NCBI GenBank assembly: GCA_009829735.1
Contig: CM020619.1
Location: 23,895,554-23,959,553 of the forward strand
Direction of reading: 5' to 3'
From: Pyropia yezoensis
Taxonomy: Eukaryota > Rhodophyta > Bangiophyceae > Bangiales > Bangiaceae
DNA: 64,000 bases
Below, one piece after another: positions 12,376 through 55,922 of this stretch (within the stretch, counting starts at the first letter, position 1; each line of letters opens with the position of its first letter). Made by a program: the position numbers and the translations under genes. A model generated the notes under the pieces. The model was not told the origin of the DNA. It worked only from the letters and a program-made list of their open reading frames with translations, and ran no database searches.

Positions 12376-12736
12376 TGTAGCACAATAGGGATCCGTCGCA
12401 CGTCCACTCTCAGGGAACACTCACCAAGGGGGATCGGCACCAACGTCACCGGGAGGCCAAGGTTGCTGTCCTTGGAGCGCAAGCCACGGGACCAAGATGG
12501 GAGCCCAAATGGGAGGGGTTTGTTGTTCTACCTTGGCCGGCGGTGGATTCGCCGCCGGCCCCCACGTTATAAACCCTCGGAGACACTACTAACTACCCTC
12601 CCCCCCAAGATGCAAGTCCCTCTGGTCATACGTAACTTATAGATACCGTGACCAGTACGAACTATCAAATTGGAAGTTAAGGGTTAGAAGTAGCCCCCCT
12701 AATATTAGGGTTACAACGGCCAACCATATTGCTACA
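12376..12736 (-). repeat. 3' LTR of element 1
   Basis: 361 bp with perfect inverted termini TGTAGCA...TGCTACA. A plus-strand TATAAA (12568-12573) faces the antisense ORF rather than gag. The LTR contains strong hairpins, for example a 9-bp stem at GCCGGCGGTGGATTCGCCGCCGGC (about 12535-12560). Confidence 0.95.
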
Positions 12737-12739
12737 TAT

Positions 12740-12748
12740 CCCCCCCTT
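12740..12748 (-). other. Polypurine tract of element 1
   Basis: Minus-strand AAGGGGGGG lies 3 nt from the 3' LTR boundary, the position where plus-strand DNA synthesis is primed in LTR retroelements. Confidence 0.7.
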
Positions 12749-13320
12749 AGATTCGGCCCGTCCTCGGGTCGAGTTGCATTCGGGTTACCGAATGTAAGTG
12801 GGTCGCGTGACCGTTTACCAGTCGGGTGGGGCTTTGCGCCCCGTCGCGACAGACACCCCTTCTCGAGGTTGTCTGAGGGGGGTGCCCCCCGTTGTGTGGT
12901 ACACACACGATCCGTTTTCCGGACCGTTAAATTCCCGATGCGGGTTCTGTTCACGACCCCCCTTTCCGAGGGGTGGTGCAAGCGGATCCGCCACCAGGTG
13001 TCTGGTGGTAGGGGAGCCCCTCTCGTGTTACCGAGTGAATGGGGGCGGCCGCTCCCGCTTTTCGCGGGGGCGGTTTCGGGGTGAACCCCTCTTGGTTGCC
13101 CCGTACGGGGGTGTGGCCCCGGCCCGCCCAGGTGCCTGGGTGGAGCCCGTTCGTAGCCTCGTGGGGCGCGGGTTGACCCGCGCGCCTGTGGCGCTTCTCG
13201 TGGCCGTTTGTGGTCATAAGCGCGGGTGTCCGCGCTTCCCTGGCTCGTCCCGGTTATCCCACCGTACCGGGTCGTAGCCGTCGACGGCTTGTGGGCGCGG
13301 GGGACTCCGCACCCGTTATC

Positions 13321-15768
13321 ATGTCCTATCCCCAGGTGCTTGAAGAGGAGGAAGACCTCCTGATCGGGGAGGAGATGGAGGACGACGCGCCTGTCGGTCC
13401 TGACGCCGCGCGTTACGGGGTGAGCTCGTCTGAAGACGACGAGCCTGCGGTGTCCGTCCGTCTGTCGGCCGGAGGACTGTCGTCCGTGTGCAGCGGCACG
13501 ACGGTGCCGTCGGCCGGAGGTCAACCCGGCGGTCAACCGCGCGTGGCGGCTTCTACCCCCTCTCTGCCGGCTGCCCGGATGGAGCCTGGTGCCGGTGCCG
13601 GCTCACCGCAGCTACCCCAAGATGGCCCGGCCTGCGGCGGAGGTGGCGATTCCCGGCCGAGTCCGGCCGGGCAAGGTGGTCCGGGTGTCCGGGCGGTGAC
13701 TCCTCAAGGCGGTCCCGACATTGACGCGGGTGGTGGTGGCGGTGCGACACCCGGTGCGGCGAGTCAAGACGGTGCGGGTGTCCGCACGGCCGGTGCTTCG
13801 GCTCCGGAGGCTGTCCAAGTGCCTTCCCCTTCCGAGGCGGGGGCTACGTCGACGGGTGGTGCCGGCGCCGGTACCCTACCTGCGGTGCCGCGGGCGTCGA
13901 GCGGTCAAGACGCTCCTTCCCCCATGGCGGTTGACACCGGGAGCTACTCCGGGCGGGCGCCCGCCCTTCTTCTTCCTCCTCGGCCTCGTCCACCTCCGGC
14001 GTCGGCCCCTCTGCCGGTGGGGCATCCCCCGGCGCCCCCGATTCTTCCTGGTCCTGCCCGGGTTGCCCCGTTGGGTGGCGGCGTCGCCGTGGCGGCGGGT
14101 CAACCCGCCATGTCGATGTTCGACTTGGTGGCTCGGGTTCGAGGCCTGACTGTGCAAGAGTCAATGGAGTCCGATGGGCGGATGCGGGTGGACTTCCACC
14201 TGCCCCATCCCCGTGGAGAGTCCTCCCGGCGCATCAAGGTGGACCCGAGTTGGGAGCGGGAGTTGGTGCGGCTGGTCAACCAGCCGAACGCGGTGCGAGT
14301 GGAACACCATTGGATCCTGAGTCAGCCGGACGACCGGCATGCGCAGCTCTGGCGTACTCGGGTGGGACGGGGTGAGGTCTACCTCGACCCCAACTTCGGG
14401 GTATGCGACCTGATTGCCCCCGCGTTGCCGCGGGAGATTGACTACCCGGCTAGTGCTCGGGGGATTGCGGCGGCGGCGGAGCCGGTTGCGTTTGGGGAGA
14501 CGGTGGGCAGTACCGGTCGGTATCCCGACTTTGATTACTACCCGGGGGTATCCCCGTATCTGTCGTTGACGGCCCCCTACCCGCCTATGGCGGGGTTGAA
14601 GTCGGCGTCGAGCTGGCGACGTAACCATGGTGTCATGGCGGATGCGTTTCGCACGGATATAACGTGTGCGTTGCAGACCGGCAACGGTCGTGCGCCAGTA
14701 TACACTCCCGTGCGCCCGCCGCTATGGCAGGAGGGGTGGGAACCCGCCCCTGCTTTCCGGTTTGACACCGGCTCCTGTCTCCGATACTTCGGGAGTATGT
14801 TGGCCTCCCGGCCGGTCCACCCGTTGCAGGGTACCTTCACCCTTGAGGTTACCCTCGGGCAGGCGTCCTCCTTCTTGCTGTCCGTCCGCCGGCAGGGGCG
14901 CCTGTTTCATCTTTCGACGGGTGTCCGTCGGTACATCGCGCAGTTGGGCGTGGACCTGATAGCTGCCAAGACCGGGTTGGCCCGGGAGTTCGAGGCTCTG
15001 CTGGCTGTTCACGATGCCGTGAACTGGGCTGGGGTGTTGGCCCTTCCCCCTTACCGGGACCCGCAGGCTGGGGCTACCCCCTTGCCTCGTCACTCGTTGC
15101 GTATCCGGCGTACTCAGCCGGGTGAGCCTAGTTGCCATGGGTGGGCGTCCACCGAGGCCGTTCCTGACCTGGGTATTCCCATGGTTGTCCATGACCCTCT
15201 TCAGGTCCTTGCCCCGTGGTTCGGTAACCCGATACCGGCGGCGGTTGGCCGTCGTCCCCGAGAGTGGGGCTCTGCGGGTGGGGAGCGTGAGGTGTCCCGT
15301 CGTCGGGCGGAGCCCCGCCGGGGTTACGGTGGAGCCCCTTCGGTAGGGTCCTACCGGGCCTCGTATCAGGTGCCACCGGCTCCGGTGGTAGCCGTGTCGG
15401 CTCCTGTGGCTCCTCTGGCTGCGCCAGTGTCACCTCCCGCCCCTGTCATGAATGACGGGGGTCCCCGTCTCTGGTATGAAGGCGTTGACGCCCTAGTTAC
15501 CCGCGCAATGCGGGAGGGTCTCTCTGTTAGCTGGGGGGATATCCCCCCAGGTGCTGCGCTAGTTGGGTCAGCACGTTGCTTCGGTGGCGTGCTGGACCGC
15601 CTCCAGAAAGCTCTGGAGGACGTGGAGGCTGGCCGCAGCACCCTCGTCCAGCTATGCACCGAGGTAACTCGGGTGATCGACCGTCGTGACATTGCCGACC
15701 GGTGGAGCACGGAGGTATACGCGCATACGCGTGAGTGGCCTCCCTCGGGCAGTGGGTCTACCCACTGA
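13321..15768 (+). CDS. Antisense ORF of element 1 (aORF1), unknown family
   Basis: An 815-codon ORF runs opposite to gag-pol between the 3' LTR and the end of pol. I start it at the first ATG (13321), which gives an acidic N-terminus (LEEEEDLLIGEEMEDD). Residues about 40-260 are Gly/Pro/Ala/Ser-rich and probably disordered. Residues about 265-815 look globular, with WRTRVGRGEVYLDP, GVCDLIAPALP, RRNHGVMADAFR and a C-terminal helical stretch ending DIADRWSTEVYAHTREW. I recognise no known domain and no membrane segment. Two other elements here carry an ORF in the same place: aORF2 shares a V(V)CDL...P and HGVxxxFR pattern, and aORF3 shares the C-terminal VLxxxxDRxxxA...TRxxxAxxWS pattern. Length and composition argue for real coding sequence rather than a shadow, since no gene lies opposite it. 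Confidence 0.72.
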   Translation: MSYPQVLEEEEDLLIGEEMEDDAPVGPDAARYGVSSSEDDEPAVSVRLSAGGLSSVCSGTTVPSAGGQPGGQPRVAASTPSLPAARMEPGAGAGSPQLPQDGPACGGGGDSRPSPAGQGGPGVRAVTPQGGPDIDAGGGGGATPGAASQDGAGVRTAGASAPEAVQVPSPSEAGATSTGGAGAGTLPAVPRASSGQDAPSPMAVDTGSYSGRAPALLLPPRPRPPPASAPLPVGHPPAPPILPGPARVAPLGGGVAVAAGQPAMSMFDLVARVRGLTVQESMESDGRMRVDFHLPHPRGESSRRIKVDPSWERELVRLVNQPNAVRVEHHWILSQPDDRHAQLWRTRVGRGEVYLDPNFGVCDLIAPALPREIDYPASARGIAAAAEPVAFGETVGSTGRYPDFDYYPGVSPYLSLTAPYPPMAGLKSASSWRRNHGVMADAFRTDITCALQTGNGRAPVYTPVRPPLWQEGWEPAPAFRFDTGSCLRYFGSMLASRPVHPLQGTFTLEVTLGQASSFLLSVRRQGRLFHLSTGVRRYIAQLGVDLIAAKTGLAREFEALLAVHDAVNWAGVLALPPYRDPQAGATPLPRHSLRIRRTQPGEPSCHGWASTEAVPDLGIPMVVHDPLQVLAPWFGNPIPAAVGRRPREWGSAGGEREVSRRRAEPRRGYGGAPSVGSYRASYQVPPAPVVAVSAPVAPLAAPVSPPAPVMNDGGPRLWYEGVDALVTRAMREGLSVSWGDIPPGAALVGSARCFGGVLDRLQKALEDVEAGRSTLVQLCTEVTRVIDRRDIADRWSTEVYAHTREWPPSGSGSTH

Positions 15769-16247
15769 GGAGTGTTATTGTTTGTACGGGAGAGGGACCC
15801 GGTGGCCCTTATGGTGGCCGGGTAGTAGTGAGTGTAAACTCATCCCCCGCTGGGGGCATTGCTTGCCTCTGTTTGCTGCCCTGGGGAGTACCCCTTCTGG
15901 CTCAGTGGTGCCTTGCCTCCCGTCCAACTTCTTCCGGTTGGTTCATGCTTGGGGAGGTTATCCTCCCTCACTTTGTGTCTTGGCTTTGGGAGGTCATCCT
16001 CCCGTGTAAGCCCCCTAGTTACTTCGATATTATCGAGGTTAGCCTTTACCTTTAAGTTAACTTATTAAGGTTCAGGTTTTACTTAGTTACCTAAGCTTAG
16101 TTCGACTTAGTTACCTAAGCTTGGTTCGACTTAGAAACCTAAGTCTGATTTGACTTAGAAACCTAAGTCTGCCATAACCATGTCACACCCTACTTAGTAG
16201 GTATAAGCCTCACCCCCCAACAGCCGAAGTCGGTGTCGGTTGGGTTG
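15769..16247. other. Spacer between convergent aORF1 and pol of element 1
   Basis: Non-coding region where the two opposing coding units converge. It contains paired hairpins built on GGGAGG...CCTCCC (about 15950-16000) and a 24-bp tandem repeat at 16081-16173. It is the likely place for 3' ends of both transcripts; no polyadenylation motif can be assigned with confidence. Confidence 0.5.
16081..16173. repeat. 24-bp tandem repeat with internal hairpins (about 4 units)
   Basis: Units start at 16081, 16105, 16129 and 16153 and read ACTTAGTTACCTAAGCTTAG / ACTTAGAAACCTAAGTCTG plus a short variable end. Within each unit CTTAG and CTAAG are complementary around a 4-nt loop, so the array can form a row of identical stem-loops on either strand. 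Confidence 0.85.
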
Positions 16248-19200
16248 TTACAGTAGGCGTCGTCGCCTCATGTAAGGCATGAGTAGTTGGCGGGGTATAT
16301 TCGCCGCCTGTTCCCAGGTGGGTGAGTCGTATCCGACCCACATAACCTTGACGTACCAGGGTCCTGGTAGGTCCGGGTCGGTGTGTCCGACCACGCTCTC
16401 TACTTGGTATGGGATCCCATCCGGTCCCACCGGGTCATCTGACCGGTGGGTTGTAAGAGCTTCATGTAGCAACCCAGCCGGTACCGGCTGAGGCTGTTCC
16501 GGCTTCGGAGCAGGTGTGACATCATTCACACTGATGCGTTGGATCTCCGTATCGGAGTGTAAGATAACAGAGTGGTCATCTCTGTGGAGAATCTGGTACG
16601 GTCCCTTGACCGGTTGCATGAGCTTATTGCCCCGGAACTTCTGGTGTCTGATGTAGACCCAGTCACCTGTTATCAGGGTAACGTTGCGCACCCGTAGTCG
16701 GGCGTCGAAGTTCTTCTTATAGCGAAGTTGTGTTCTGTCAAGGGCACCCTTGAGCTTAGGAATCATCCACGATAGCTTGGCCAACCAAGCTAGGAGGATA
16801 CGTTCGGCCGGTCGGCCTTTCGGTGTATCATACCGAGTGCACCTGCCTGGTGGCAGCGTCAGGTTACCGACGCCTAGTGGCATGACCCACTCCAGCGGAG
16901 CGATGTTTGTGCTCCGATGTGGCCTGGCATTGTATGCCAGGGTGAGTACGGACAGAAGCCTGTCCCAAGTGTTCGTGTGCTCGGCCACGTAGCACTGTAG
17001 CATCTTGACGATGGTGCGGTTGAACCGCTCCACCTGCCCGTTGGTTTGCGGGTGGTAGTCGGATGCCCGACGTGGTTCGATACCGAACATGCCCAGGACC
17101 TTAGTGCAGAATGCTGACGTAAGGTTTGCTCCGTTGTCGGAGAGGAGTTGCTTCATGACTCCGTATGCACTGATCCAGTGGTCAACCACTGCGTTCATGA
17201 TGGTGTATGCCGTATCATTCGGGATGGCTGCCGCTCGTGACAGCTTAGTGAACCGGTCAGACATGACCAGGATGTACCTGTTCCCTTCTTCCGTTACCGG
17301 AAGTGGCCCGAGTATGTCGATAGCGACCTGCTCGTTGGGCCCATCAGGTGGGAATAGGTTCATGGCAGACGCCTGCCTATGCAGACTCATGCGGTTACGT
17401 GCACAGGGGTGGCATCCCCTTACGTGGTCGACCACGTCGACGGCCATTGCTGGCCAGTAGAAGAACCTTCGCATTGCTGCGAACATACGTGAACCCCCCG
17501 GGTGTCCGGCTGTGGGGTTCTCGTGTTCTCGTTCCATGACGGCTTGCCGTAAGGACACGGGAACCACGACTTGATGTCGTCCATCGGCGGGTGCCCGCCG
17601 GTATATGAGTCCGTCTTCGTTCTCGGAGAAGATGCCGGCCGTACCGGCCAGGAGGTTAGCGCGATGACGTCTACAGTCGTCGTCATTGGCTTGTGCCTCG
17701 CGGAAGTCCGCGAGGGATAGTGGGCATGCTCGGTGTGCCATGGTATGGTCAACCATACCTTGGGTAGCGTTACCCACCATGCAGACCGGTACCACCGGGA
17801 TGTCCTCGTCCACCGGGCGGGTATCCCCGCTCGGGGTGTCGATTCGAGACAATGCGTCTCCGAGATGGTGGGTTGACCCAGCCTTATACACGGTACGGTA
17901 GTCGTGCTTGGCCATTTTTAGCCTCCATCGGGCTAGCCTCCCATGGCTATCGGAATCCTTGTCACCAAGGTTGGGGAGCCATCGTAGGGGTTCGTGGTCG
18001 GACCTCACGATGAACCTGGAGCCCTCCAGGTATGGATGGAGCAGTTGCACTGCCCATATAACTCCGAGGCATTCACGCTCGGTGGCACTATAGTTACGCT
18101 CAGCCGGGTTGAGTGTCCGGCTGAAGTATCCTACCGGACGTAGGTCCGGGATAACGTTATCGATACCGATCAACGTCTCTCCCTGTAACAGGGTGCATCC
18201 CACTTGTGTATCGCATGCATCGACATCGATGACGAAGGTACCCCGTCGGTGCGGTAACGCAAGGACGGGTGGGGATAGTAGGGCTCGCTTCAGCGACTCG
18301 AATGCCTCCTCTTCGCTAGGCGAAGGGGGTTGGAGTACCTTGGGCAGGGTACTGCTCGTAAGAACCGTTAACGGTTTAGCTATCCGAGCGAAGTCCTTGA
18401 CGAACCGTCGGTATACATTGCACATTCCCAGGAAGCTCTTGAGCTGTGTCTGGGTGTTAGGGAACCGGGCATCCCGGAGTGCCCGGGTATTGGCTTCGAG
18501 TACCCCTAGTTTACCAGGGGTTATCTGGTGGCCCAGATACTCGACCGTCTGTTGGAAGAAGGCGCACTTCTTCAGACGCAGGGTTACCCCGGCGTTCCTC
18601 AAAAGGGTGAGTACCTCGTCAACATGTTGCACATGGTCATCCATGTTACGCGAGAAGACGATGACGTCATCGAGGTACACTAGGCAGTTACGCCACTTCA
18701 CCCCCGACAGTATAATGTCGATAGCCCGCTGGAATGTAGCGGGGGCATTGGACAATCCGAAGGGCATCCTTAGGAACTCGTACACTCCACTGTGACAGAC
18801 GAATGCCGTCTTGGGGATATCCTCGTCCGCCACCGGGATCTGCCAGTATCCGGCATTGCAGTCGATGGTGGTAAACACCGTAGCTTCCCCCAGGGAGTCG
18901 ATGCATTCATCCATCCTTGGTAAAGGGTGGGAGTCCTTCTTGGTAACCAAGTTGAGGCGCCGATAATCGATGCAAAACCGAGGGGTTTGATCCTTCTTCG
19001 GTACGATAACGACTGGGGCACCCCACTCCGACATCGAAGGTCGTATCACCTTCGCTTCACTCATCCTCTTCACTTCTCCATCAACGATCTCTCGTTGCAT
19101 AGGTCGCGCTCGGTGCGGTTGTGACCGGGCGGGGCGTGCGCCTGGTACCAGGTCAATACGATGTTGGGTTGCCCCAATGGTACCCAGGGCTCCGCCTGTC

Positions 19201-20414
19201 CACATGACGTCATGCTTTCTTAGCATCCGTCGTACCCCTTCGGCTACGGAAGGGGGAAGGTGGTCGAGGTCAGCCTCGGCCAGTGCCCTCAATGCTTCTT
19301 GGTCCTTCGGCGGAATATCCGCCGGTAATGATGGTCGACTAGGCTTCCCGTCATCGGGTTGCTGTCGCTCGGTGGTCTCGGCGACTGCCAGCACCTCAAG
19401 TGGGTCCACTTGACCTTCCTTGTCAGGGGTAAGGATATCTCCTTCGTAGAGCTCGGCAATCCCGAGGATAGTTCCCTTCGGGAGGGTGACTGCCTTACGG
19501 CGATAGTTCGCCATCACTAGGAGGGACGACCCTCCTGATGGGAGGTCTATGAGACCGTTGGCCATGGTCAACCCATGGCGCTTGTACGTCCGCAAGTTGC
19601 ACTTGACTCTGCAGATGCCTGCGAGGTCACAGTTAACCGGGAGGACTGTCTCCGACAACGGCTCAAAGCGAGTTCGCTTGGCCAACCGAAGTGTCTTCGG
19701 CTCGACACTTGCGTACACCTCAGCCGCGTTAACGTGGCTCCCTTGTAGCGTCAGGTCCCTGACGATAGCCGTGTGTCCTCGCTTCGTCCCGTCGGCTTCT
19801 TGAAGCTCGACGGTCCTCCGGCCTGGCCGGATTGCATCAACGTGAACGTTGATGAAGGTGCACCCCAGTATGCAGGGCACCGATAGGGTCTCACACACCA
19901 GGAAGTCGACTTCCGTGGTGAGTTCCCCGATGGTAACCCGCAGCGACATCGCTGCGGTCGTACGAATGAGGCGACCATTCGCGTCCTTGATGGTGGGTCC
20001 CCGAGTCACTCTGACTCGCGGAAGCCACTTGTCCGGGAGGGTATCCTTCCGGATAAGGTTGGGTCCAGCCCCTGTATCCAGTACAGGGTAGTACGATCGT
20101 GTCGACTGGGGGTCAACCCCCAGTGTGGCTGATACCTTGAAGTTCTCCAAGGTAAACAGCACGTGGCCTACACCGATATCCGGTGTAGCTCGGGCATCCT
20201 GAACAGGGCCCTTGTCTGGTTCCATGTGACGGGGCTTCCCGTCCTCTCCTCCCAACCTTGGTGGTTGGTCATCAATCCCCTGACGCCGTGTCGTCGGGGC
20301 CGGAAGGTGTACCCGGGGGTTGATGCGGCGTCGGCTCAACCGCGCTCTCCGTGGGGCTTTCCCCGCGGTACTCCGCGGTGGCTTGCCTGGGTTACCCCAG
20401 CGCCCCCCGGTCAT
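16248..20414 (-). CDS. pol: Pol polyprotein of element 1 (PR-RT-RNase H-integrase-chromodomain)
   Basis: 1388 codons from the ATG at 20414. The frame is also open upstream through the shift site at 20435, so it is probably made as a gag-pol fusion by -1 frameshifting. Aspartic protease motif VLDTGAGPNLI is at about 111-121. Reverse transcriptase has FCIDYRRLN at about 480-488, MPFGLSNAPATFQRAI and the catalytic YLDD at about 580-583. RNase H starts with FVIDVDA, later TERECLGVIWA. Integrase has an HHCC zinc finger (HENPTAGHPG...GCHPCARNRM) and a core with SDRFTKL, LSDNGANL and HPQTNGQVERFNR carrying the D, D and E positions. The C-terminus (YVKVMWVGYDSPTWEQAANI) resembles a chromodomain, which in chromoviruses targets integration to heterochromatin. 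Confidence 0.95.
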   Translation of the reverse strand: MTGGRWGNPGKPPRSTAGKAPRRARLSRRRINPRVHLPAPTTRRQGIDDQPPRLGGEDGKPRHMEPDKGPVQDARATPDIGVGHVLFTLENFKVSATLGVDPQSTRSYYPVLDTGAGPNLIRKDTLPDKWLPRVRVTRGPTIKDANGRLIRTTAAMSLRVTIGELTTEVDFLVCETLSVPCILGCTFINVHVDAIRPGRRTVELQEADGTKRGHTAIVRDLTLQGSHVNAAEVYASVEPKTLRLAKRTRFEPLSETVLPVNCDLAGICRVKCNLRTYKRHGLTMANGLIDLPSGGSSLLVMANYRRKAVTLPKGTILGIAELYEGDILTPDKEGQVDPLEVLAVAETTERQQPDDGKPSRPSLPADIPPKDQEALRALAEADLDHLPPSVAEGVRRMLRKHDVMWTGGALGTIGATQHRIDLVPGARPARSQPHRARPMQREIVDGEVKRMSEAKVIRPSMSEWGAPVVIVPKKDQTPRFCIDYRRLNLVTKKDSHPLPRMDECIDSLGEATVFTTIDCNAGYWQIPVADEDIPKTAFVCHSGVYEFLRMPFGLSNAPATFQRAIDIILSGVKWRNCLVYLDDVIVFSRNMDDHVQHVDEVLTLLRNAGVTLRLKKCAFFQQTVEYLGHQITPGKLGVLEANTRALRDARFPNTQTQLKSFLGMCNVYRRFVKDFARIAKPLTVLTSSTLPKVLQPPSPSEEEAFESLKRALLSPPVLALPHRRGTFVIDVDACDTQVGCTLLQGETLIGIDNVIPDLRPVGYFSRTLNPAERNYSATERECLGVIWAVQLLHPYLEGSRFIVRSDHEPLRWLPNLGDKDSDSHGRLARWRLKMAKHDYRTVYKAGSTHHLGDALSRIDTPSGDTRPVDEDIPVVPVCMVGNATQGMVDHTMAHRACPLSLADFREAQANDDDCRRHRANLLAGTAGIFSENEDGLIYRRAPADGRHQVVVPVSLRQAVMEREHENPTAGHPGGSRMFAAMRRFFYWPAMAVDVVDHVRGCHPCARNRMSLHRQASAMNLFPPDGPNEQVAIDILGPLPVTEEGNRYILVMSDRFTKLSRAAAIPNDTAYTIMNAVVDHWISAYGVMKQLLSDNGANLTSAFCTKVLGMFGIEPRRASDYHPQTNGQVERFNRTIVKMLQCYVAEHTNTWDRLLSVLTLAYNARPHRSTNIAPLEWVMPLGVGNLTLPPGRCTRYDTPKGRPAERILLAWLAKLSWMIPKLKGALDRTQLRYKKNFDARLRVRNVTLITGDWVYIRHQKFRGNKLMQPVKGPYQILHRDDHSVILHSDTEIQRISVNDVTPAPKPEQPQPVPAGLLHEALTTHRSDDPVGPDGIPYQVESVVGHTDPDLPGPWYVKVMWVGYDSPTWEQAANIPRQLLMPYMRRRRLL

Positions 20415-20422
20415 CCTTCCTC

Positions 20423-22606
20423 TTACTCGTTTCCCGCCCTTGGTAGGGTGCTGTCCGCCGGGCCATCCGGCTGAGGAGGTGCCTCCTCGACGGCCAGTAC
20501 TCCACCTGGGGCTGGCTGCCTACCCGGTGCGGGTCCGGGTGCTCTGGCGGGATACCCCCCGGTGGATGCCTTGCGGTGCGCCGCTGCCCGCCGAGACTCC
20601 TCGGGGATGAGTGGGCAGGAAGACACCCAGTGCTGGGGATCCCCACACAACATACATCCGGACGTGCCGGTCCCTCCTTGAGTTCGCATCGGGGTAGCCC
20701 CGTAGCTGCGGTTGCCTCCCTCGGGCGCCCGAGTGCCTGCTCCCTGGTAGGCCTTGGGTCCTTGGGTCAACCGGAACATGGACTCCCCCAACCGGTTGGG
20801 TCGGCCCGCAATCTGCGGAGGTGCCTCCGTACGTACTGCCCATGTAGGCAGGGGCTGGTGGGGGTTACCCGTAACCGGGGAATACCCCGTCGTCCGCACA
20901 TACGGGACGCGCCGTCCCGCTCCCTCGTTGACCTGGAACTGGGTCCCAGCCGGGGCGATGTACGCTACCGTACCGTGCTCATCAATCACCGGCGTCGCCG
21001 GTAGCAACAGGTGGCCCTGTTGGTCAACTAGAGGTTCATCCTCGCCCGTAGGGGTATGTTCGGTCGCCACCAGTACTGGTGCGGCCTTACGTTCCACCTT
21101 CTCTTGCCTCGGTACCGGGGTGAGACTGGGCTTGCCTCCCTCACCCTTGGGCTTCGGGGCCAAGGCACACTCCGGGTGTAGAACCCGGTAGGCGTCCCCG
21201 AGGGACTTGCACATATGCATCAGTCGACTGAAGTTCGTCCGGGCCGTATTGGCTCCCCGAGCGGATATCCGCACGTAGTTGGGTACTCCTGCGAACAGGA
21301 TGGCCCGTAGCTCCCCTTCTCCGAGGAGCTTCCCCAGCTCGTAGTCGAGCTCTTGGATCCGGCGTCCAAACATCTCCTCATCCTCCCAGCTCTGGGCGGT
21401 CGCAGTGCGCAGGGCTCGGTAGTGGTCCTCGCACTTGTCCTCACTGAGGTTACTGCTCAGCAGCTCCTTCAGAATCCCACGGTAATCCATGGGGGTGGCC
21501 GCGACCCTCATTCCCGGCATCGGGGATGCCTGGCGATGAATGCCTCGCACCCGTTCATCAACAAAGAACAGGAGGATCTCCAGCGCCAGCCCCTCGTTAA
21601 CGGGGGCCTTGTCCGCGGCTGCCTTGAAGCTAGTTAAGAAGCCGATGACTGCCAACGGACGTCCGTTGGGGCCCCCGAACATAGGGACTCCCTTCATAAG
21701 GGTCTGCATAGAGCGGATCGCTCGGTGCGACGTATTACGCGTCGATTCCGATACGGTGGTAGAGCGGTCCTCCAAACGATAACGTTCGGGAGTCAGTACC
21801 GACCGGAAGACCTCGTTGACGATCTCCGTGTCAGCGTCCTGGATATCCAGTCGCTTCGCCAGTTGATGAGCAAACTCATCGGACTCCATCCGCTTCAGTA
21901 GGCTCGCAGTTACCTGCGCGGTCATAGCTTCCACCACTGAAGATGGTACTTCAGGCGTCGGCACTTCGGGAACCCGAGTTGCCTGGCCTCCTTCGTCGTG
22001 GGGATACTGTGAGAGGGTACCCCCTCCGCCAATAACCGACTCTCCACCGGCGTAAGTATCCGCCGGGTCGTGTCCACGGAGTCCGCTTCGGGTGCTCCGA
22101 GCGTATCGCTCCGTGTGGCTCCGTTCCAACTCTGCCGACGAGTCGGATCCATACCCCATTGTGTCCGGGGGTTGTCCAGGAGTAGCAACACCGGGGTTGA
22201 CCCTGGTGGACTCCGAAAGTAGTCCGGCCGGTTCGAACCGTACTGGTGCGGGAGGAACACGACGGGGTCCCGTCGTGTGGCGTGTTGACATCAACACTGC
22301 CATCGCGTCCTCCGTCCGCTCCTGGCGAGCGTCGAGTCCGGAAAACCGGGCCTCGATGCGGGCCAATGATGCCATCAGGGAATCCCCTGGTGAAGGAGGC
22401 GGCGGAGTGAGGTCGGTCGACGACAGTTGAGGCGGGCCCCCGCCTCCTGCCGTCCGAGCCGTGCCAAACGTCGATCCGGCACCTGAGAGCATTGGCGTCT
22501 CAATGTTGTCGATCGGGTTCCCGATCTCGGTTCCCGTAGTCACCTCCGGGGTCGGCGTCGACGCCGGTCCGTCATCTTGAACGTTCCCCGTCTCTTGGGT
22601 AGACAT
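20423..22606 (-). CDS. gag: Gag of element 1
   Basis: 727 codons from ATG at 22606; two upstream in-frame codons lead only to a GTG. The capsid-like region at about residues 270-450 contains KGVPMFGGPNGRPLAVIGFL, the equivalent of the F..FL..F segment in the other gags here. A CCHC knuckle CMLCGDPQHWVSSC (C-x2-C-x4-H-x4-C) lies near residue 660. The N-terminal 250 residues are polar and low-complexity. The protein ends two codons after the frameshift heptamer. It packages the element RNA and forms the particle. Confidence 0.93.
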   Translation of the reverse strand: MSTQETGNVQDDGPASTPTPEVTTGTEIGNPIDNIETPMLSGAGSTFGTARTAGGGGPPQLSSTDLTPPPPSPGDSLMASLARIEARFSGLDARQERTEDAMAVLMSTRHTTGPRRVPPAPVRFEPAGLLSESTRVNPGVATPGQPPDTMGYGSDSSAELERSHTERYARSTRSGLRGHDPADTYAGGESVIGGGGTLSQYPHDEGGQATRVPEVPTPEVPSSVVEAMTAQVTASLLKRMESDEFAHQLAKRLDIQDADTEIVNEVFRSVLTPERYRLEDRSTTVSESTRNTSHRAIRSMQTLMKGVPMFGGPNGRPLAVIGFLTSFKAAADKAPVNEGLALEILLFFVDERVRGIHRQASPMPGMRVAATPMDYRGILKELLSSNLSEDKCEDHYRALRTATAQSWEDEEMFGRRIQELDYELGKLLGEGELRAILFAGVPNYVRISARGANTARTNFSRLMHMCKSLGDAYRVLHPECALAPKPKGEGGKPSLTPVPRQEKVERKAAPVLVATEHTPTGEDEPLVDQQGHLLLPATPVIDEHGTVAYIAPAGTQFQVNEGAGRRVPYVRTTGYSPVTGNPHQPLPTWAVRTEAPPQIAGRPNRLGESMFRLTQGPKAYQGAGTRAPEGGNRSYGATPMRTQGGTGTSGCMLCGDPQHWVSSCPLIPEESRRAAAHRKASTGGYPARAPGPAPGRQPAPGGVLAVEEAPPQPDGPADSTLPRAGNE
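20429..20435 (-). promoter_or_regulatory. -1 ribosomal frameshift site of element 1
   Basis: On the minus strand the heptamer G GGA AAC sits in the gag zero frame, followed by GAG and the stop TAA (20423-20425). A one-base backward slip enters the pol frame, which is open from here to its end at 16248. Downstream RNA can form hairpins at once (CTGGGGTAACCCAG and CCGCGGAGTACCGCGG), as expected of a stimulator. The same heptamer in the same place is found in elements 2 and 3. Confidence 0.85.
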
Positions 22607-22831
22607 AGTCACAATCAGTCAACCGACGTAACAATCACCACGAATAAGAGAGCGAGGGGGTAGATTGGGGAGAGTAACAGTAGATCACAGTCAAACGTAA
22701 AAACTCAACACAATCGATCAGGTCGCAACACCACGAGTTCAAGAAAAGGACCGGATCCCTATCCGTGTGCCAGGGCCGAAGACGGCGTCACCACAAGGGT
22801 GACGGAAACCCGTCCCCTGCTGCTCCACCAA
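22607..22831 (-). other. Leader and primer-binding site of element 1
   Basis: The 18 nt at 22813-22830 read TGGTGGAGCAGCAGGGGA on the minus strand, one nt from the 5' LTR. They are complementary to a tRNA 3' end with CCA and an acceptor 3' strand CTGCTCC. The identical 18-mer is used by element 3. I cannot name the tRNA. Confidence 0.8.
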
Positions 22832-23194
22832 TGTAGCACAATAGGGATCCGTCGCACGTCCACTCTCAGGGAACACTCACCAAGGGGGATCGGCACCAAC
22901 GTCACCGGGAGGCCAAGGTTGCTGTCCTTGGAGCGCAAGCCACGGGACCAAGATGGGAGCCCAAATGGGAGGGGTTTGTTGTTCTACCTTGGCCGGCGGT
23001 GGATTCGCCGCCGGCCCCCACGTTATAAACCCTCGGAGACACTACTAACTACCCTCCCCCCCAAGATGCAAGTCCCTCTGGTCATACGTAACTTATAGAT
23101 ACCGTGACCAGTACGAACTATCAAATTGGAAGTTAAGGGTTAGAAGTAGCCCCCCTAATATTAGGGTTACAATACGGCCAACCATATTGCTACA
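22832..23194 (-). repeat. 5' LTR of element 1
   Basis: 363 bp, identical by eye to the 3' LTR except for two extra nt (AATACGG versus AACGG near its right end). Followed by target duplication CGCTG at 23195-23199. Confidence 0.95.
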
Positions 23195-28498: not shown

Positions 28499-28511
28499 TT
28501 TCCCCCTTCTC

Positions 28512-29502
28512 AAAAGTCCAGCCGTCCCGGTGGACGTCCAATCAGCGGCGAGTCGCAGTGACCGGGAGAGGAGGATGCAATTCCCGAGTTGAGATGCAAA
28601 GTACGGTGCATCGCTGGCGTCTAGCGTGCACCAGGGTTACGCCGGGGTTGCACTCGCGTCCGGCGGGGCCCTCCGGGAGAGGCAGTCCCTCTCCGTGGGG
28701 TGCGCTCTCTGCCCTGACACTGGGTAGAGGAGCCCCCTCCACGCGAAACAGGTGTGGGGGAAAGTCGTCCCCCACCTGGTCAGGGTGCTCCACGGGTGGA
28801 CTCACGTGTGGGTGAGCCCCCTAACCTGGGTGTCGGCGTACCTCCGCCACACCCCCTGCCCCTCAACTGGAGGAGTAGGGCGTCGACGTTCTCACTCGGA
28901 ACGTCGACCTGCACCTGCCCCTTCAGTTGGGGTACGGTTGCTCTCGGGGGGTCGGGTTGTGTCCCCCCCTTCAGCTCGATCCACCCCCAGCTGGCTCTCT
29001 GCGGGGTGTTCCTCACTCCTCCCCTCCCTTTCTAGTCAGGGTTGAGGGGTGTGCGCACCCCGAGTTGGGGGTGTTGCACTCGGTCGCCGGCGGTGGGACT
29101 CGGCCGCCGGTGCGGGGTCTTCTCTCCCCTTCGTGTGTGCGGGCGGGTGTGTGCCTTCCCGCCGCTGCTCCCTCGCGTCGGCGGGTCTGTCTCTTCCCGC
29201 CGTGCGGTTGGTGTCGTTGGTTGGGGTGGTGTCTTCCCCCTTCCGCCCCTGTGTCGGGCGTCTTCGTTGTCGGTGGGGGCGTGGGTTGTGTTCCCCCCCC
29301 TTTGTCCTCGTTGGCGGGGTTGTGTCTTCCCCGCGCTGCCCCTTGTGTCGGGCTTCTTCGTTGTCGGTGGGGGGTGTGGGTCGTGTCCCCCCCCCTTGCT
29401 CTACCTCACCGAGTCGGTCAAGGTTGGTTGTCGTCGGAGGGGGAGCGGGTCGTGTCCCCCCCCGTGCTCAACCTCACCGAGTCGGTCAAGGTTGGTCGCG
29501 TG
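28512..29502 (+). repeat. Hairpin- and tandem-repeat-rich leader of aORF2
   Basis: Positions 28620-29040 contain many GGGG/CCCC stem-loops (for example GTGGGGGAAAGTCGTCCCCCAC near 28751-28772). Positions about 29240-29500 hold degenerate tandem copies of a GTCGGGCTTCTTCGTTGTCGGTGG unit and two copies of CTCACCGAGTCGGTCAAGG (about 29405 and 29473). Frames are open but low-complexity, so I do not extend aORF2 into it. Confidence 0.6.
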
Positions 29503-30555
29503 ATGGCGGGTGAGCCGAGTCGGCCTTTGTCCCCGTCTCCGACGTCTCTGTCGGACAAGCGACGGACGGGAGAGGAGGCCCTCGGGACTGAGGAGTCTCT
29601 CAGCCGGGGGTCGGCCATGGAGACGACTCGTCCCGGGCGAGGGTCGGAGGCGGCCGCCTCAGCCGTCCCCGCCCCATCACCTCCTACTGCCCCCTCGGCC
29701 GTGGTCCCACCGGGGGATGGGTCTTCCAACCCGGTGGCGGAAGGGGATGTGACTCCCATTCCCCGCCTTCCTGAGTCACGGCTGCTACTCCCGCCGCGGC
29801 CCCGTCCTCCTATGGGGCCCCGAGCCTGGGCGCCTCCCAAGTCAGTCGGGGAGCTTCCCGACTGCAAGCTCAAGGATGTCTACTTGATCATCCCCGAGCC
29901 ACGGCGGATCGACGTATGGTACCGCCGGACTCGTCGGTACCCCAACCAGGTGACTCTACCTGATGGGGTGGTCTGCGACCTACCAGCGCTACTCTGCCCG
30001 GCGGACGCGCCTGAAGTCCAGGCGTTGTCAACCTCCCTCGCCTTGGGGTCGGGCGACAAGGAGATCGACGACACCCACGCGGTTGTGTCTACCGAGTGGT
30101 GTGCCCTTCCCCGTCCCTACCTGGGCGGAGAGGACGCCCACGCCCAACACGGCGTGGTGCGAGAGGAGTTCCGACTCCGGGGCTCCTCGGGCTTCCTCAT
30201 CCACGGGTCGCGGGTGGAGTTCACCCACGTACCTCTGGAGGAGCGTGAGCACCAGTACCCTTTTCTCCCAGGGTGGTGGGAGTGGCCGTATGGAACGCTA
30301 GAGTCAGCGGTCGAACGACTTGTTCTTTCCTTGGTGAGAAGAGTGGTGGGTATTCTTCTCGTTTTGTATTGTGCCATAGTCGGCTTTGTTAGTAGAGAAT
30401 CTTTGAAGAACCATGGTATGTGTTTGTACTCATGGTTGGCTTGCCGCTCTGCTCTGACTTGGAGCAGGGACTTCATCCCCCGACGTACGAGTGCTACGTC
30501 GGCGTATAGATATGCCCACAGTCTGGCAGTATCTACGGACCTTCTCTACTGGTAG
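29503..30555 (+). CDS. Antisense ORF of element 2 (aORF2), unknown family
   Basis: 350 codons from the ATG at 29503 (upstream open frame to 28927 is repeat-derived). The N-terminal 90 residues are Ser/Pro/Ala-rich, then there is a globular part with RIDVWYRRTRRYPNQVTLP, GVVCDLPALLCP, HGVVREEFRLRG and PFLPGWWEWPYG. The GVVCDL and HGVxxxFR segments resemble aORF1. After about residue 265 comes a hydrophobic stretch (VVGILLVLYCAIVGFV) that could be a membrane helix. The last 42 codons overlap the pol end on the opposite strand (30430-30555) and are probably not conserved. It is shorter than aORF1 and aORF3 and may be truncated. No known function. Confidence 0.58.
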   Translation: MAGEPSRPLSPSPTSLSDKRRTGEEALGTEESLSRGSAMETTRPGRGSEAAASAVPAPSPPTAPSAVVPPGDGSSNPVAEGDVTPIPRLPESRLLLPPRPRPPMGPRAWAPPKSVGELPDCKLKDVYLIIPEPRRIDVWYRRTRRYPNQVTLPDGVVCDLPALLCPADAPEVQALSTSLALGSGDKEIDDTHAVVSTEWCALPRPYLGGEDAHAQHGVVREEFRLRGSSGFLIHGSRVEFTHVPLEEREHQYPFLPGWWEWPYGTLESAVERLVLSLVRRVVGILLVLYCAIVGFVSRESLKNHGMCLYSWLACRSALTWSRDFIPRRTSATSAYRYAHSLAVSTDLLYW

Positions 30556-33500
30556 GTCCTCTACAAACTCCCATGTATCGGAAGTTGGTCCATACCCGAA
30601 CCACCTGACTCGGAGCATGAGTCGCCCCGACTCATCATATCCGTGTCCGACAAACTTGTCGAACACCGCCTCCAATGGCTTATTGGAAGAGGTCGGCAAG
30701 GATGGGACTTTCCATGCTTGCAAAGCCCTTTCCCAAGCGGGATCTCCCTCTGGGGGTTCGGGTGCGCGAGTCGCGTGATTCCCATTTATTGTCCGGATAC
30801 CATCATCACTCTCGATGGTTAACCGACGTCCATCCGTTTTAAGGATGTGATATGGTCCCAGAGTCTTGAAGACCAATTTCCCTCCCTTATTGTCGTGGGA
30901 GTTAACATAAATCCAATCTCCAACTCGGAGCGGATCGCGACGATGTCTGACTCGGACATCGAAGTACCTCTTGTAACGGGCTTGGGCCTTCTCCATAGTA
31001 GCCCGGACAAGGGGTATCATCTCCTCCAGTCTCTGGAGTAGGGAGGCTTTCGCCTGACTCGGTGTTTGAGTCGAAGTCTCACCCTCAGTCTGGGTGAGAC
31101 GCTCCACAGCTATTGACGGAAGTCGTCGGGGGCAGACGAAGGCAAACGGTGCCTCTCCCGTACTACTGTGTACCTGGGAGTTGTATGCTGTCACGAGTAG
31201 TGACGCATAACGAGCCCATGTGACTACATGGTCATGGACATAGTGACGCAATTGGCGCACTAGAGTCCTGTTGAATCGTTCCACCTGCCCATTAGTCTGG
31301 GGATGGTAAGGGGTGGCGAAGTTCGTCTGCACCCCCAACATCTTCATGACTCCCTGATACAGGACGGACGCAAACTGTGGTCCGTTATCCGAAAGGATAG
31401 AGTCGGGGATGCCATAACTGGCAACCCAGACGTCGAGTAACTCACTCAGAACGTCCACGGCTGTGATATCCTTGAGTGGGGATACCCGTGTGAGCTTAGT
31501 GAAGCGATCACACATCACCAGAAGGTACTCATATCCTTCAGGTGTTCGTGGTAGTGGACCGAGTAAGTCCACTGCTATCGCTGCAAACGGCTCTGTTGCA
31601 GGAAAGAGTCTCATGGAAGAAGTCTGCCGGGACTCCATGAGTCTATTCTTTGCGCAAGTCGCGCATGCGGCTACATATCCGTACACATCAGCCACGAGTG
31701 ATGGCCAATAGTACTTCTTACGTAGGGTCTGATACATCCTCGTAGACCCTGGGTGTCCACCCAACGGTGAGGAGTGCTCCCGTTGGAGGATACTCTTGCG
31801 TAACTCCTTGGGGACGACGACTTGCTTGTCCCCCTGGGTATATCCCTTACGGCAGAGTATGCCGTTGTCATTCAGGAAGAACCGAGTCGGTTGAGCCTGG
31901 TCGAGCTCCTTCCTGAGTCGTCGACAAAGTTTGTCGCTCTCCTGTGCCTGGACAAACTCATCCAAAGACACGGGTAATAATTTGGCCATGCCAGGCATCC
32001 TCGGGTCGAGGACAGTTCCGGAGCGAGTGGTCACTGCCACATGAGGGAGTTCCTCAGGGATAGGGGAAGTGTCTTTCCCATCCGTCGGTATGCGAGACAA
32101 CGCGTCCGCAACCGCATGCTTCGGGCCTGGCCGATATTCAACATCATAATCGAACTCAGCGAGGCAGAGTCGCCATCGATTGAGTCGGTTATTCGTACAG
32201 GCTGTAGTGGTGAGTATCCACTTCAAAGCCTTGTGGTCACATCGAATGAGGAACTTCCTTCCTTCGATGTATGGCCGTAGCATGGAGACTGCCCATACCA
32301 CGCCAAGACCCTCTACCTCCGTCACAGAATAGTTCTTCTGGGCGGGTGAGAGTCCCTTACTGAAATAGCCAACGGGTAAATACTCCCCCGAAGGCTGTTG
32401 TTGGAGTAAGCAACAACCGAGTTGGTCGTAACTTGCGTCCACATCAACGATGTAGTGAGCCCCCGGTCTCGGGATCGCTAACACCGGTGGGTTGCAGAGG
32501 AGCTCTCGCAACCTATCAAACGCTTCTTGCTCCGGGGGTTTGGGAGCATCCAAGCGCTTGGGCATCTTGGAACTTACCAAGTGGTTCAACGGTGCAGACA
32601 CTTTGGCATAGTTCGCCACAAAGCGTCTGTATACGTTACACATACCCAGGAAGCTCCTGAGTTGTGTCTGCGTCTGGGGGAACTTCGCCCGACGGATGGC
32701 CATGAGGTTCTTCTCATTGACCAGAATGCGACCTGGCCGGACTATATGGCCGAGGTACTCCACCTCATTACTAAAGAGGTGACACTTCGTAGGTTTGAGT
32801 GTTACTCCTGCTTCACCCAACAGGGTAAACACTCTGTCCAAGTGGGACAAGTGTTCTTCGGCAGTCCCGGAGAACACAATGATATCGTCCAGATACACCA
32901 GGGCGATCTGCCACTTGACTCCGGCAAGTATCAAGTCAATAGCACGCTGGAAAGTCGCAGGTGCATTGCAAAGCCCAAAAGGGAGCCGTGTACACTGATA
33001 AACTCCACAGTGACACGTGAAGGTGGTCAAGTGTCTGTCCTCCTTGCGGATGGGTATCTGCCAGTACCCCGCGTTGCAGTCCAACGTGGAAAAGTACTGT
33101 GCCTCACCGAGTGAGTCAAGGCAATCGTCCATACGGGGTAAGGGGTAACTATCCCTTACCGTCCGCTCGTTTAGCTTACGATAATCGATGCAGAACCGCA
33201 TCGTGCCGTCTGACTTGGGCACCAAGACTATGGGACTGGCCCACTCACTTGAGCAAGGCTCAATGACTCCCATGTCTTGCATCCGTTGGACCTGCTCTCG
33301 GGTGAGTTCCCGTGAGTCTGGTCCCATACGGTAGGGACTCAGGCGAACTGGCCTAGCCCCTGGCTTCAACACGATTCTGTGTTCGGTGGCCTTGATGAGC
33401 CCAAGGTCACCATTCCACAACTTGTGATGCTTCTGGATTAACTCATCCAGTCGTCCATGTAAACACTCCGGGATGTTCTCCCGATGTACCGTCGGCGACT

Positions 33501-34419: not shown

Positions 34420-34457
34420 TACCGCTGGAGCCTTTGGGTCAGTCTTAGTCCCAGCGG

Positions 34458-36175: not shown

Positions 36176-36747
36176 TGTGGTATAAAACTCGATCCTCTCA
36201 GACACGTGTCAATATCCCTCGGGGGAAAGGGACAGGTAACGCAGAAAGGGGAACTACGAGAATGGTATGCCTGTTGCCTCACGTGCCTGCTTGCAGGGCA
36301 AACAGATACGCACGGTAGTGCACACGGGGAAGAGGAAAGCAAACGCGCAGTTGTCTTTTTCCCTGAGGGCGCGGGCCGAGGGCGCCTCGCTGTCCCTCTT
36401 AACATGCATCTGGGGGAACCCCGGCACGTTGGCCCGGTAGCCCCCCCATAACCCCGAGTGGCCCCGACCCGAGTCTAACCTCGTCAGGTCGGGGGCCACT
36501 ATCACTACTAATTCTATTCCCACTCACTAATCTCACACTCAAATTCTCTCAAATCAAGTCCCTCACAAATATGCAAAAACACATCAGAAATCCCTCTCTC
36601 GCGTGTGGATAGCGTAGTCCACCGCATCCCAGTGCCGGGCACGGGCCACGGCCGCCAACCATCGCCACACGGCGGGCGTGTTCTGGCACCTGGTGCCCTC
36701 TGGTTGCAGTCCCGGGTCGGCGCCAAGTCGGGGCCAGGGATGCTACA
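36176..36747 (-). repeat. 3' LTR of element 3
   Basis: 572 bp, TGTGGTATAAAAC...GATGCTACA as read on plus. A plus-strand TATAAAA box (36181-36187) points towards the antisense ORF. The minus-strand polypurine tract AGGGAGGGAG lies at 36751-36760. A solo copy of the same LTR, inverted, is at 48620-49190. Confidence 0.94.
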
Positions 36748-36931
36748 TAGCTCCCTCCCTAGTCCGGCACGTCCTCGGGCCGAACCAGGTGCCACCGTGC
36801 ACAGCCTCGAGCACGTCCACACCGGTGCCGAGGTCGAGCGTCTTCACCCCGGTCACGATCACCTGCCCCGATTCTGCCCCCCCCCTCCGCTCCTTCACCT
36901 TGGCCCTCTCGTTCCCCGGAGTCTGGACGGT

Positions 36932-39049: not shown

Positions 39050-39194
39050 TAGTTGGAGGCAAGGAGGGTGAGGGTCTTGGGAGAAGCGAGGAGGGAAGAG
39101 GCGGAGAGAAGGGTTGCTCGAGCGGGTGCTTGGTTTCCTTGATTGTTCCATGCTTGCATTGCGTGTTCTCCTTGATATACCCGTTCCCTTCTTC

Positions 39195-43154: not shown

Positions 43155-43282
43155 ACAGGGTGTCCAGGCGGCTACCGGTTGAGCAGGTAACTGCCGTCCT
43201 TTCTCCCGGCACGCAAGGGGAGAACAGGTAGAAGTACCCTGCCGTTGGAGATTCGGGAAGACACTTGGGGAGAGCGCCTGCC

Positions 43283-45043: not shown

Positions 45044-45252
45044 GTTGGTCTCTTGACAGCCACAGTCCAGTTACCTGCGTGTCCAAAGATCGCAAGACCA
45101 CAAGAGAGGGGTTGGAGAGCCAGGAATGGGGTTCCCGTGAACGGGTGCAAATAATTCCCAAACCACAGAAAAAGACAGAATAGGAACAACGCAACCGCTG
45201 CTCCCAAATGTCTCTTCTCAAACACTCCAATCCCCTGCTGCTCCACCAAATA
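45044..45252 (-). other. Leader and primer-binding site of element 3
   Basis: Primer-binding site at 45231-45248 (minus TGGTGGAGCAGCAGGGGA), identical to that of element 1, 4 nt from the 5' LTR. The rest is untranslated leader. Confidence 0.8.
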
Positions 45253-45824: not shown

Positions 45825-45829
45825 CCCCT

Positions 45830-52549: not shown

Positions 52550-52601
52550 GCTGGGGAGGTCGGGGGTGCCAATCATGGGGGGAGATGACCGCAGCGCCGC
52601 G

Positions 52602-55883: not shown

Positions 55884-55922
<39 letters not shown>

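What the first reader, a model, noticed from the sequence alone, without database searches (positions are those of the whole stretch)
12737..22831. Element 1 is paved end to end with short inverted repeats
Almost every 20-40 nt there is a local hairpin with a 5-9 bp stem and a 3-8 nt loop, in the leader, gag, pol and antisense ORF alike. Examples in pol: CTGGGGGTCAACCCCCAG and CTACACCGATATCCGGTGTAG (about 20108-20185), ATCAACGTGAACGTTGAT (19837), CCGCAGCGACATCGCTGCGG (19938), CAGTGGTCAACCACTG (17175), ACGTGGTCGACCACGT (17421). In the aORF1 leader: CATTCGGGTTACCGAATG, GGGGCTTTGCGCCCC, CACCAGGTGTCTGGTG, CCCAGGTGCCTGGG in close succession (12775-13140). Protein motifs are preserved throughout, so hairpins must be accommodated by synonymous choice. 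This looks like genome-scale ordered RNA structure, known in some RNA viruses, or repeated quasi-palindrome correction by template switching during reverse transcription. I know of no description in LTR retrotransposons at this density.
Basis: seen in the sequence. Interest (0 to 1): 0.87.

Follow-up and report, generated by a model that had tools for sequence, protein, structure and literature searches.

The report
Clade-specific hairpin code in retrotransposons
A retrotransposon in what looks like a red-algal genome carries many dozens of tiny stem-loops, in its genes and between them, that mostly share one loop pattern, and a second retrotransposon clade does the same with a different pattern, which suggests that each clade writes its own structural code into its sequence for a purpose not yet known.

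Summary
All ten quoted hairpins are present. Element 1 (E1) has 99 perfect stems of 7 bp or more against 8.4 in dinucleotide shuffles; its pol has 49 against 3.6 in 100 codon-preserving shuffles, maximum 11. Element 3, the DIRS-like ORF and the host genes tested lie within their codon shuffles.

The tools show more. E1 hairpins sit on one core: closing G-C around loop D-Y-R-H, then about 3-6 further pairs of arbitrary sequence. Element 2 (E2) and its relative E2b use another core, A-[C/G]-T centred on a base. Each rule is confined to its own clade. E2 and E2b pol are 64% identical in DNA and equally dense, yet most hairpins lie at different places.

Mutations in copies erode the hairpins and do not form core-arm pairs above chance. 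This speaks against reverse-transcriptase template switching and for selection, but the direct selection test is mixed: depletion in pol by two of three counts, none in aORF. The reader of the code is unknown; I favour an element-encoded nucleic-acid-binding protein such as Gag.

The parts
12376..12736 (-). E1 LTR (left; 3' LTR in gag-pol sense), carries no E1-rule hairpin
   Evidence: 361 bp; the right copy is 363 bp, 2-bp indel; 0 rule sites
22832..23194 (-). E1 LTR (right; 5' LTR in gag-pol sense); 5-bp target duplication CGCTG flanks the element
12737..22831 (.). E1 internal region: 78 sites obeying the E1 rule (core GDYRHC with at least 4 of 5 arm pairs), 7.7/kb
   Evidence: 21 such sites in the other 53.9 kb of the window (sum mine)
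13210..15768 (+). E1 antisense ORF (852 aa, no Pfam match at E 0.001), hairpin-rich; 23 full-arm E1-rule sites against 2.0 in 300 codon shuffles (max 7)
15769..16247. E1 non-coding stretch between aORF and pol; 7 of 9 core sites (looser core) carry at least 3 consecutive arm pairs
16248..20414 (-). E1 pol (RVT_1, RNase H, integrase domains; protease match just under its cut-off); 30 full-arm sites against 2.5 (max 8 of 300 codon shuffles)
20423..22612 (-). E1 gag (no Pfam match; CCHC knuckle seen by eye); 16 full-arm sites against 1.1 (max 5)
17422..17437 (.). example hairpin ACGTGGTCGACCACGT (core GTCGAC)
19938..19957 (.). example hairpin CCGCAGCGACATCGCTGCGG
28499..36175 (.). E2 internal region (gag-pol on -): 53 sites obeying the E2 rule (core AST with at least 5 of 7 arm pairs), 6.9/kb; 2 E1-rule sites
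45825..46192 (.). rest of E2 beyond the nested element 3: 5 E2-rule sites, 13.6/kb
36176..45824 (.). Element 3, nested in E2 (TSD CCCCT): little of either rule (5 E1-rule and 6 E2-rule sites in 9.6 kb)

Best explanation
E1 and the E2 clade each carry a heritable, clade-specific hairpin code: many interchangeable mini stem-loops with arbitrary arms and a fixed loop core (E1: G-C closing a D-Y-R-H tetraloop; E2 clade: A-[C/G]-T in the middle of an odd loop), spread through coding and non-coding parts. Shown: density, core, geometry, clade restriction, and turnover of positions with the code kept. Supported, not proven: the code is held by selection on the transposing lineage, since mutations in copies erode it. 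Inferred: the hairpins are many weak binding sites for a protein that the element itself encodes, most likely Gag/nucleocapsid, which uses them to condense, select or assemble the element's own RNA or cDNA, as dispersed packaging signals do in some RNA viruses. The figure given as confidence is for this whole statement (lowered from 0.50 on checking, because a looser count of fixed pol differences shows no depletion); the code alone, without a reader, I hold at about 0.9.
For: Excess over codon-preserving shuffles. Core profile in E1: at 230 GDYRHC sites arm pairing .58 .52 .56 .43 .37 .34 at d4-d9.27 at d10; CNYRNG sites .27 .25 .28, GNRYNC sites .34 .30 .35 at d4-d6. Run lengths from d4 have a second mode at 3-5, none above 7. 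E2 and E2b: AST sites .31-.45 at d3-d7; TSA sites and all but a sample of 7 AWT sites about background. Rule by clade, 300 codon shuffles: full sites under the E1 and the E2 rule are E1 pol 30 and 1, E2 pol 0 and 28, E2b pol 1 and 26, E3 pol 1 and 1. Fragments not used to derive the rules: E1-like L014, L018, L020, L029 .40-.54, controls .25-.29 (these share most hairpins with E1 by descent); E2-like L012 3' part .387 and L013 gag .375, controls .30 and .25. E2 and E2b pol, 64% identical, hold 44 and 41 hairpins (loop to 16), 9 at shared centres; by another setting 28 and 34, 6 shared.31 expected. Private mutations: core-arm pairs formed 12 (sim 11.4), broken 30 (sim 33.1). 85 fixed pol differences between two E1 subfamilies: hairpins lost 4 and 5 in the two directions (one-branch sim 17.3, 16.8), solid core pairs broken 1 and 2 (8.8, 9.6); the neutral two-branch expectation is about half of each sim.
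Against: Both cores are nearly their own reverse complement and wobble pairs show no consistent strand; a site read only in genomic RNA need not be symmetric. With a looser count (at least 2 other arm pairs) fixed pol differences broke 7 and 6 pairs, one-branch sim 13.4 and 14.5, that is about the two-branch neutral number. aORF fixed differences (31) show no conservation: 6 and 1 broken, sim 4.1 and 2.9; (44 shared) also shows none. Solid pairs pooled: 10 against about 12.7, not significant. Private changes make twice the simulated number of new hairpins of any kind. Element 3 lacks the code, and in the 20 loci the central kilobases with the RT are mostly 1-2-fold, so other families do without. 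In Ty1/Ty3 most internal sequence is dispensable in cis (PMC4974528, passages). E1 LTRs lack the code. No expression, probing or binding data.
Confidence: 0.47

Rival explanations
1. Templated mutation: the element's reverse transcriptase (or repair of cDNA hairpins) turns quasi-palindromes into perfect ones; the core is the fold-back seed and the clade-specific geometry is an enzyme signature.
For: Would explain near-strict Watson-Crick pairing, strand symmetry, symmetric cores and clade specificity without selection. Private changes created 20 hairpins against 10.5 simulated when any hairpin is counted. In one non-coding stretch 7 of 9 cores carry arms, in gag-pol 64 of 231, as a process filtered by coding would give (selection would give this too).
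Against: At the cores themselves private changes formed 12 pairs against 11.4 simulated and broke 30; steady state would need about as many formed as broken. Of the 11 close pairs of private changes listed, looked at by eye only and briefly, none looked like a rewritten arm. Hairpins per kb are alike in non-coding and coding parts (20 in 1.28 kb and 133 in 8.81 kb, sums mine).
Confidence: 0.14
2. Generic genome-scale ordered RNA structure: selection for overall folding, without recognition of any loop.
Against: Does not predict fixed cores, closing G-C over C-G (145 of 1,016 against 22 of 971 sites with arms), fixed size, or two different codes.
Confidence: 0.13
3. Both strands are transcribed (gag-pol and aORF); local hairpins on both RNAs hinder sense-antisense annealing and so RNA interference.
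For: Structure about equal on both strands, few wobble pairs on either strand, code runs through the antisense ORF too.
Against: Element 3 has an antisense ORF and little of either code. A fixed loop core is not needed for this. Antisense transcription itself is not shown.
Confidence: 0.12
4. Base composition, codon usage or low-complexity artefact.
For: Host stretch 57200-64000 shows a 3-fold excess over dinucleotide shuffles.
Against: The E1 and E2 excess survives codon- and dinucleotide-preserving shuffles and is absent in element 3 and in the host genes tested.
Confidence: 0.01

Closest known systems
Dispersed packaging signals of single-stranded RNA viruses (MS2 and others; PMC6281560, passages read)
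   Same: Many short stem-loops through the genome with a shared loop motif and varying stems, compatible with coding.
   Different: Here a retrotransposon; cores nearly reverse-complement symmetric; stems nearly all Watson-Crick; no coat-protein binding shown. Density was not compared.
Genome-scale ordered RNA structure (PMC7642675, PMC3695492; search listing only)
   Same: Genome-wide folding energy below shuffles in coding sequence; density kept while positions change.
   Different: Fixed loop cores and size, and two mutually exclusive clade rules.
Ty1/Ty3 genomic RNA structure and palindromes (PMC4974528, passages read)
   Same: LTR retrotransposon RNA with palindromic sequences linked to dimerisation and Gag binding; the review also says that Ty3 RNA packaging depended on UTR or POL sequences.
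   Different: There most internal sequence (Ty3 nt 429-4979) is dispensable in cis; here the whole internal region carries the hairpins.
[quoted passage not shown]
   Same: Symmetric motif linked to an element-encoded protein.
   Different: That is a weak preference at insertion sites; here individual self-complementary sites lie inside the element. E1 and E2 both have 5-bp target duplications, yet E1 hairpins have an even axis.
Ty3/gypsy elements with an antisense ORF (chromovirus-like: a chromodomain-like pol end is seen by eye only)
   Same: gag, then pol with RT, RNase H, integrase; 5-bp TSD; antisense ORF.
   Different: These elements carry the code; element 3 of the same kind has little of it.

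Membership tests
Ty3/gypsy (Metaviridae) LTR retrotransposon | LTRs, 5-bp TSD, pol order RT - RNase H - integrase | tested here: met
   (E1; E2 likewise)
Genome-scale ordered RNA structure | folding energy below shuffles through most of the genome | tested here: met
   (E1 pol, E2); E1 gag and leader+aORF weaker, mean Z -1.1 to -1.5
Genome-scale ordered RNA structure | demonstrated single-stranded RNA folding in cells | not testable with these tools
   no probing data
Dispersed packaging signals | multiple stem-loops sharing a loop motif | tested here: met
Dispersed packaging signals | motif read on the genomic RNA strand only | tested here: inconclusive
   cores near-symmetric; an apparent sense bias in E2-like loci (-2=A 57/128 against 84/347, mirror p .55) shrank without redundant copies (29/51 against 44/159, mirror 20/51 against 39/159, p .05)
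Dispersed packaging signals | binding by the element's capsid protein | not testable with these tools
   -
Quasi-palindrome template-switch mutagenesis | mutational input creates inverted repeats above chance | tested here: inconclusive
   at cores not met (12 against 11.4); any hairpin 20 against 10.5
Integrase target palindromes | symmetry axis agrees with TSD parity | tested here: not met
   E1 TSD 5 bp but even axis; E2, TSD 5 bp and odd axis, would fit

The most novel reading that the evidence does not exclude
Retrotransposon clades carry their own identity code as nucleic-acid structure: dozens to hundreds of interchangeable loop-capped hairpins read by the clade's own protein, on RNA and cDNA strands alike, so that each clade packages or processes only itself, even when nested in or co-expressed with others.
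Probability: 0.33. Interest if true: 0.93.

Novelty: new variant of a known kind. Interest (0 to 1): 0.82.

Why it matters
If the code is read, it is a further layer of information inside the protein-coding sequence of mobile elements, predictable by a one-line rule, clade-specific and re-invented at new positions. It would make it testable how these retroelements tell their own nucleic acid from others, and it gives a natural paired system: E1 and E2 in one genome with mutually exclusive cores, and element 3 with little of either. If it is instead a mutation signature, it would be a strong one, kept over a split of 64% DNA identity.

Tried and rejected
Composition artefact: rejected by codon and dinucleotide nulls. 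Double-strand DNA palindromes as such: not favoured, because the inner positions pair little above chance (E1 d1 .32, d2 .40; E2 d2 .12-.32), although E2 d1 is A-T by its core. Integrase target sites: parity does not fit E1. Regular spacing of hairpins: none (CV .71, null .74). Known RNA families: no Rfam match in the window at the gathering threshold. RNA strand from wobble pairs: an early hint for the + strand in E1 (22 G.T against 5 A.C) was weaker with core-anchored counts (G.T 16, 7.7 expected; A.C 5, 4.9 expected; Fisher p .18), and E2 and E2b lean to opposite strands. A sense-strand loop bias in E2-like loci was partly due to redundant copies, so I withdrew it. Odd loops are not universal in E2: on its aORF side even loops outnumber odd ones, 25 to 14, although the AST rule holds there (.381). 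L023 (E1-like gag, 69% aa) follows the E1 rule (.55, n=12) but its control core is also raised (.42, n=11), so I do not count it. Literature searches for a prior description: (8 searches); no listed title or abstract start describes such a code in an LTR retrotransposon; the library holds open-licence papers only.
Full report
Setting. The window is G000:C2:23895554-23959553 of a 107.5-Mb genome in 11 contigs, three of them 29-44 Mb. Of the 120 best hits listed for a host gene (argD, 58973-60442), the top ones are unnamed (up to 99% identical); among the named ones are a Gracilaria protein (60%) and many cyanobacteria. Element 1 (E1) has LTRs 12376-12736 and 22832-23194, identical over 341 bp and, by eye, the last 20, with a 2-bp indel between, and a 5-bp target duplication. 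gag and pol lie on the minus strand, an antisense ORF (aORF) on the plus strand. All 150 places scored for its RT piece match at 99-100% at protein level; all 40 places scored in a DNA search match at 98-100%.

Geometry. Loop sizes are not random. Counting overlapping stems of at least 6 bp, E1 favours even loops: 24, 47, 59, 31, 18 at loops 0, 2, 4, 6, 8 against 7, 12, 13, 12, 9 at loops 1, 3, 5, 7, 9. E2 has a broad range with more odd than even loops between 3 and 10 (58 against 34, sums mine), except on its aORF side, where even loops lead. The pol of E2b, a family 76% identical to E2 in RT protein, also favours odd loops. Anchored on the axis, E1 hairpins show two mostly unpaired inner positions (d1 .32, d2 .40), then the stem, then an abrupt end.

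The cores. In E1 the closing pair at d3 is G-C, not C-G: 145 of 1,016 G-C sites have at least 4 of 5 outer pairs, 22 of 971 C-G sites do. The loop avoids C at its first and third and G at its second and fourth position, giving G-D-Y-R-H-C. At the 230 such sites pairing at d4-d9 is .58 .52 .56 .43 .37 .34 and .27 at d10. Runs of pairs from d4 have a second mode at 3-5 and none exceeds 7. In the E2 clade the axis falls on a base, with A-[C/G]-T at the centre: 235 sites in E2 gag-pol, 47 in the rest and 147 in E2b pol show .31-.45 at d3-d7, whereas T-[C/G]-A sites, and A-[A/T]-T sites apart from one sample of 7, do not.

Clade restriction. With 300 codon shuffles per ORF, full-arm sites under the E1 rule and the E2 rule are: E1 pol 30 and 1, E1 gag 16 and 0, E1 aORF 23 and 1, E2 pol 0 and 28, E2 gag 2 and 16, E2b pol 1 and 26, E3 pol 1 and 1, E3 gag 3 and 1, argD 1 and 0; shuffle means are 0.4-2.8, and E3 gag reaches its shuffle maximum of 3 under the E1 rule. 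Over the window the E1 rule gives 78 sites in the E1 internal region and 21 in the other 53.9 kb; the E2 rule gives 66 sites in the 9.1 kb of E2, including 5 in the short piece beyond the nested element 3, and 18 in the other 54.9 kb (sums mine). The rules were learnt on E1, E2 and E2b, so fragments in other loci matter. E1-like pieces L014, L018, L020 and L029 (88-95% DNA identity) have arm pairing .40-.54 with controls .25-.29, but they share most hairpins with E1 by descent. An E2-like gag (L013) and the 3' part of an E2b-type copy in L012, regions not used to find the rule, have .375 and .387 with controls .25 and .30. E1-like pieces do not follow the E2 rule, the E2-like pieces mostly do not follow the E1 rule (L013 .42, n=9, is raised), and an E3-like piece follows neither clearly. 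L016 and L024, positive, largely repeat L043, L012 and L013 and are not counted again.

Turnover. E2 and E2b pol are 63.8% identical in DNA. With loops up to 16 they have 44 and 41 hairpins; 9 share a centre where 0.6-0.7 are expected; with loops up to 8 they have 28 and 29 and share none. By a count on odd axes 6 are shared (28 and 34 hairpins.31 expected); 4 of the 6 have AST at the centre in both, 2 have a pair changed on both sides, and in 2 the centre changed between AGT and ACT. So most of the code was rebuilt at new places while the rule stayed.

Mutation or selection. Thirteen E1 pol copies and seven aORF pieces (1,500 nt) were compared. Of 172 private changes (98 pol, the window copy's own left out; 74 aORF) core-arm pairs formed were 12 (simulated 11.4) and broken 30 (33.1). 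Counting any hairpin, private changes in the three tests (98, 60 and 74 changes) made 20 new (10.5 simulated) and lost 40 (43.6 simulated). So mutation erodes the hairpins; the twofold excess of new ones leaves room for some creation bias. For 85 fixed pol differences between two subfamilies (65 at third positions) about half lie on each branch, so the neutral expectation is about half of the one-branch simulation in each direction. Hairpins lost: 4 and 5, 9 in all against about 17. Solid core pairs broken: 1 and 2, 3 against about 9.2. Core pairs on the looser setting: 7 and 6, 13 against about 14, no depletion. In the aORF (31 fixed) solid pairs broken were 6 and 1, 7 against about 3.5; one search agrees. 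Solid pairs together: 10 against 12.7, not significant. Selection is the better reading, but its strongest argument is the density kept between E2 and E2b, not these counts.

Which strand. The cores are nearly reverse-complement symmetric, folding is about equal on both strands, and wobble pairs are few: of 38 internal mismatches in 90 E1 hairpins 16 are G.T and 5 A.C, read on the + strand (7.7 and 4.9 expected). A pair that wobbles on one strand is broken on the other, so either both strands must fold or the process acts on DNA. This is the main fact that a plain RNA packaging model does not predict.

Mechanism. I commit to selection for many weak, interchangeable sites for a clade-specific nucleic-acid-binding protein, Gag/nucleocapsid first, acting on RNA and perhaps cDNA. 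Steps shown: the code, its clade restriction, its turnover, erosion by mutation. Steps inferred: maintenance by selection, a protein reader, the role in packaging or condensation.

Known work. The nearest ideas are dispersed packaging signals (PMC6281560, passages) and genome-scale ordered structure (search listings). For yeast Ty1 and Ty3 the internal sequence is largely dispensable in cis, although Ty3 packaging is said to depend on UTR or POL sequences (PMC4974528, passages). The searches named in Tried and rejected list no description of such a code in LTR retrotransposons.

Limits. The sample of other families is small and biased: 20 of the 150 scored RT places were fetched as 10-kb stretches, many of them alike; a second set and random host controls could not be fetched, so host controls come from the window alone. 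Nothing is known of expression.

Noticed in passing
10351-10500: A near-perfect long inverted repeat (arms about 60 nt by eye, short centre), folding Z -21.5 on the + strand: looks like a foldback or MITE-like insertion, unrelated to the E1/E2 codes.
   Followed up: no
52123-57145: Element with 256-bp identical direct terminal repeats and minus-strand ORFs that by eye resemble a tyrosine-recombinase retroelement (DIRS or relative); Pfam gave no match for the ORF 52605-55097. No excess of either rule.
   Followed up: partly
G000:C2:9881009-9892975: Four matches to the E1 aORF piece spaced exactly 3,489 bp apart: looks like a tandem array of an E1-derived segment.
   Followed up: no
27960-46731 with 36176-45824: E2 carries element 3 nested near its gag end; the LTR pairs (539 and 572 bp) are identical and the TSDs intact (GGGTG, CCCCT), so both insertions look young.
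   Followed up: yes
E1 pol copies L031-L042 against the window and L010: E1 has at least two subfamilies about 4% apart in pol: the window's (40 of 40 scored DNA matches at 98-100%) and that of the 12 copies picked (mean divergence 0.9%).
   Followed up: partly
60616-62379: GC-rich (74%) host ORF with an excess of stems over dinucleotide shuffles but within codon shuffles; an 18-bp inverted repeat lies in 57200-64000, probably at about 60640-60680 (window 60601, Z -8).
   Followed up: no
27960-28498 and 46193-46731: E2 LTRs carry E2-rule hairpins (4 each, 7.4/kb) whereas the E1 LTRs carry none of the E1 rule.
   Followed up: no
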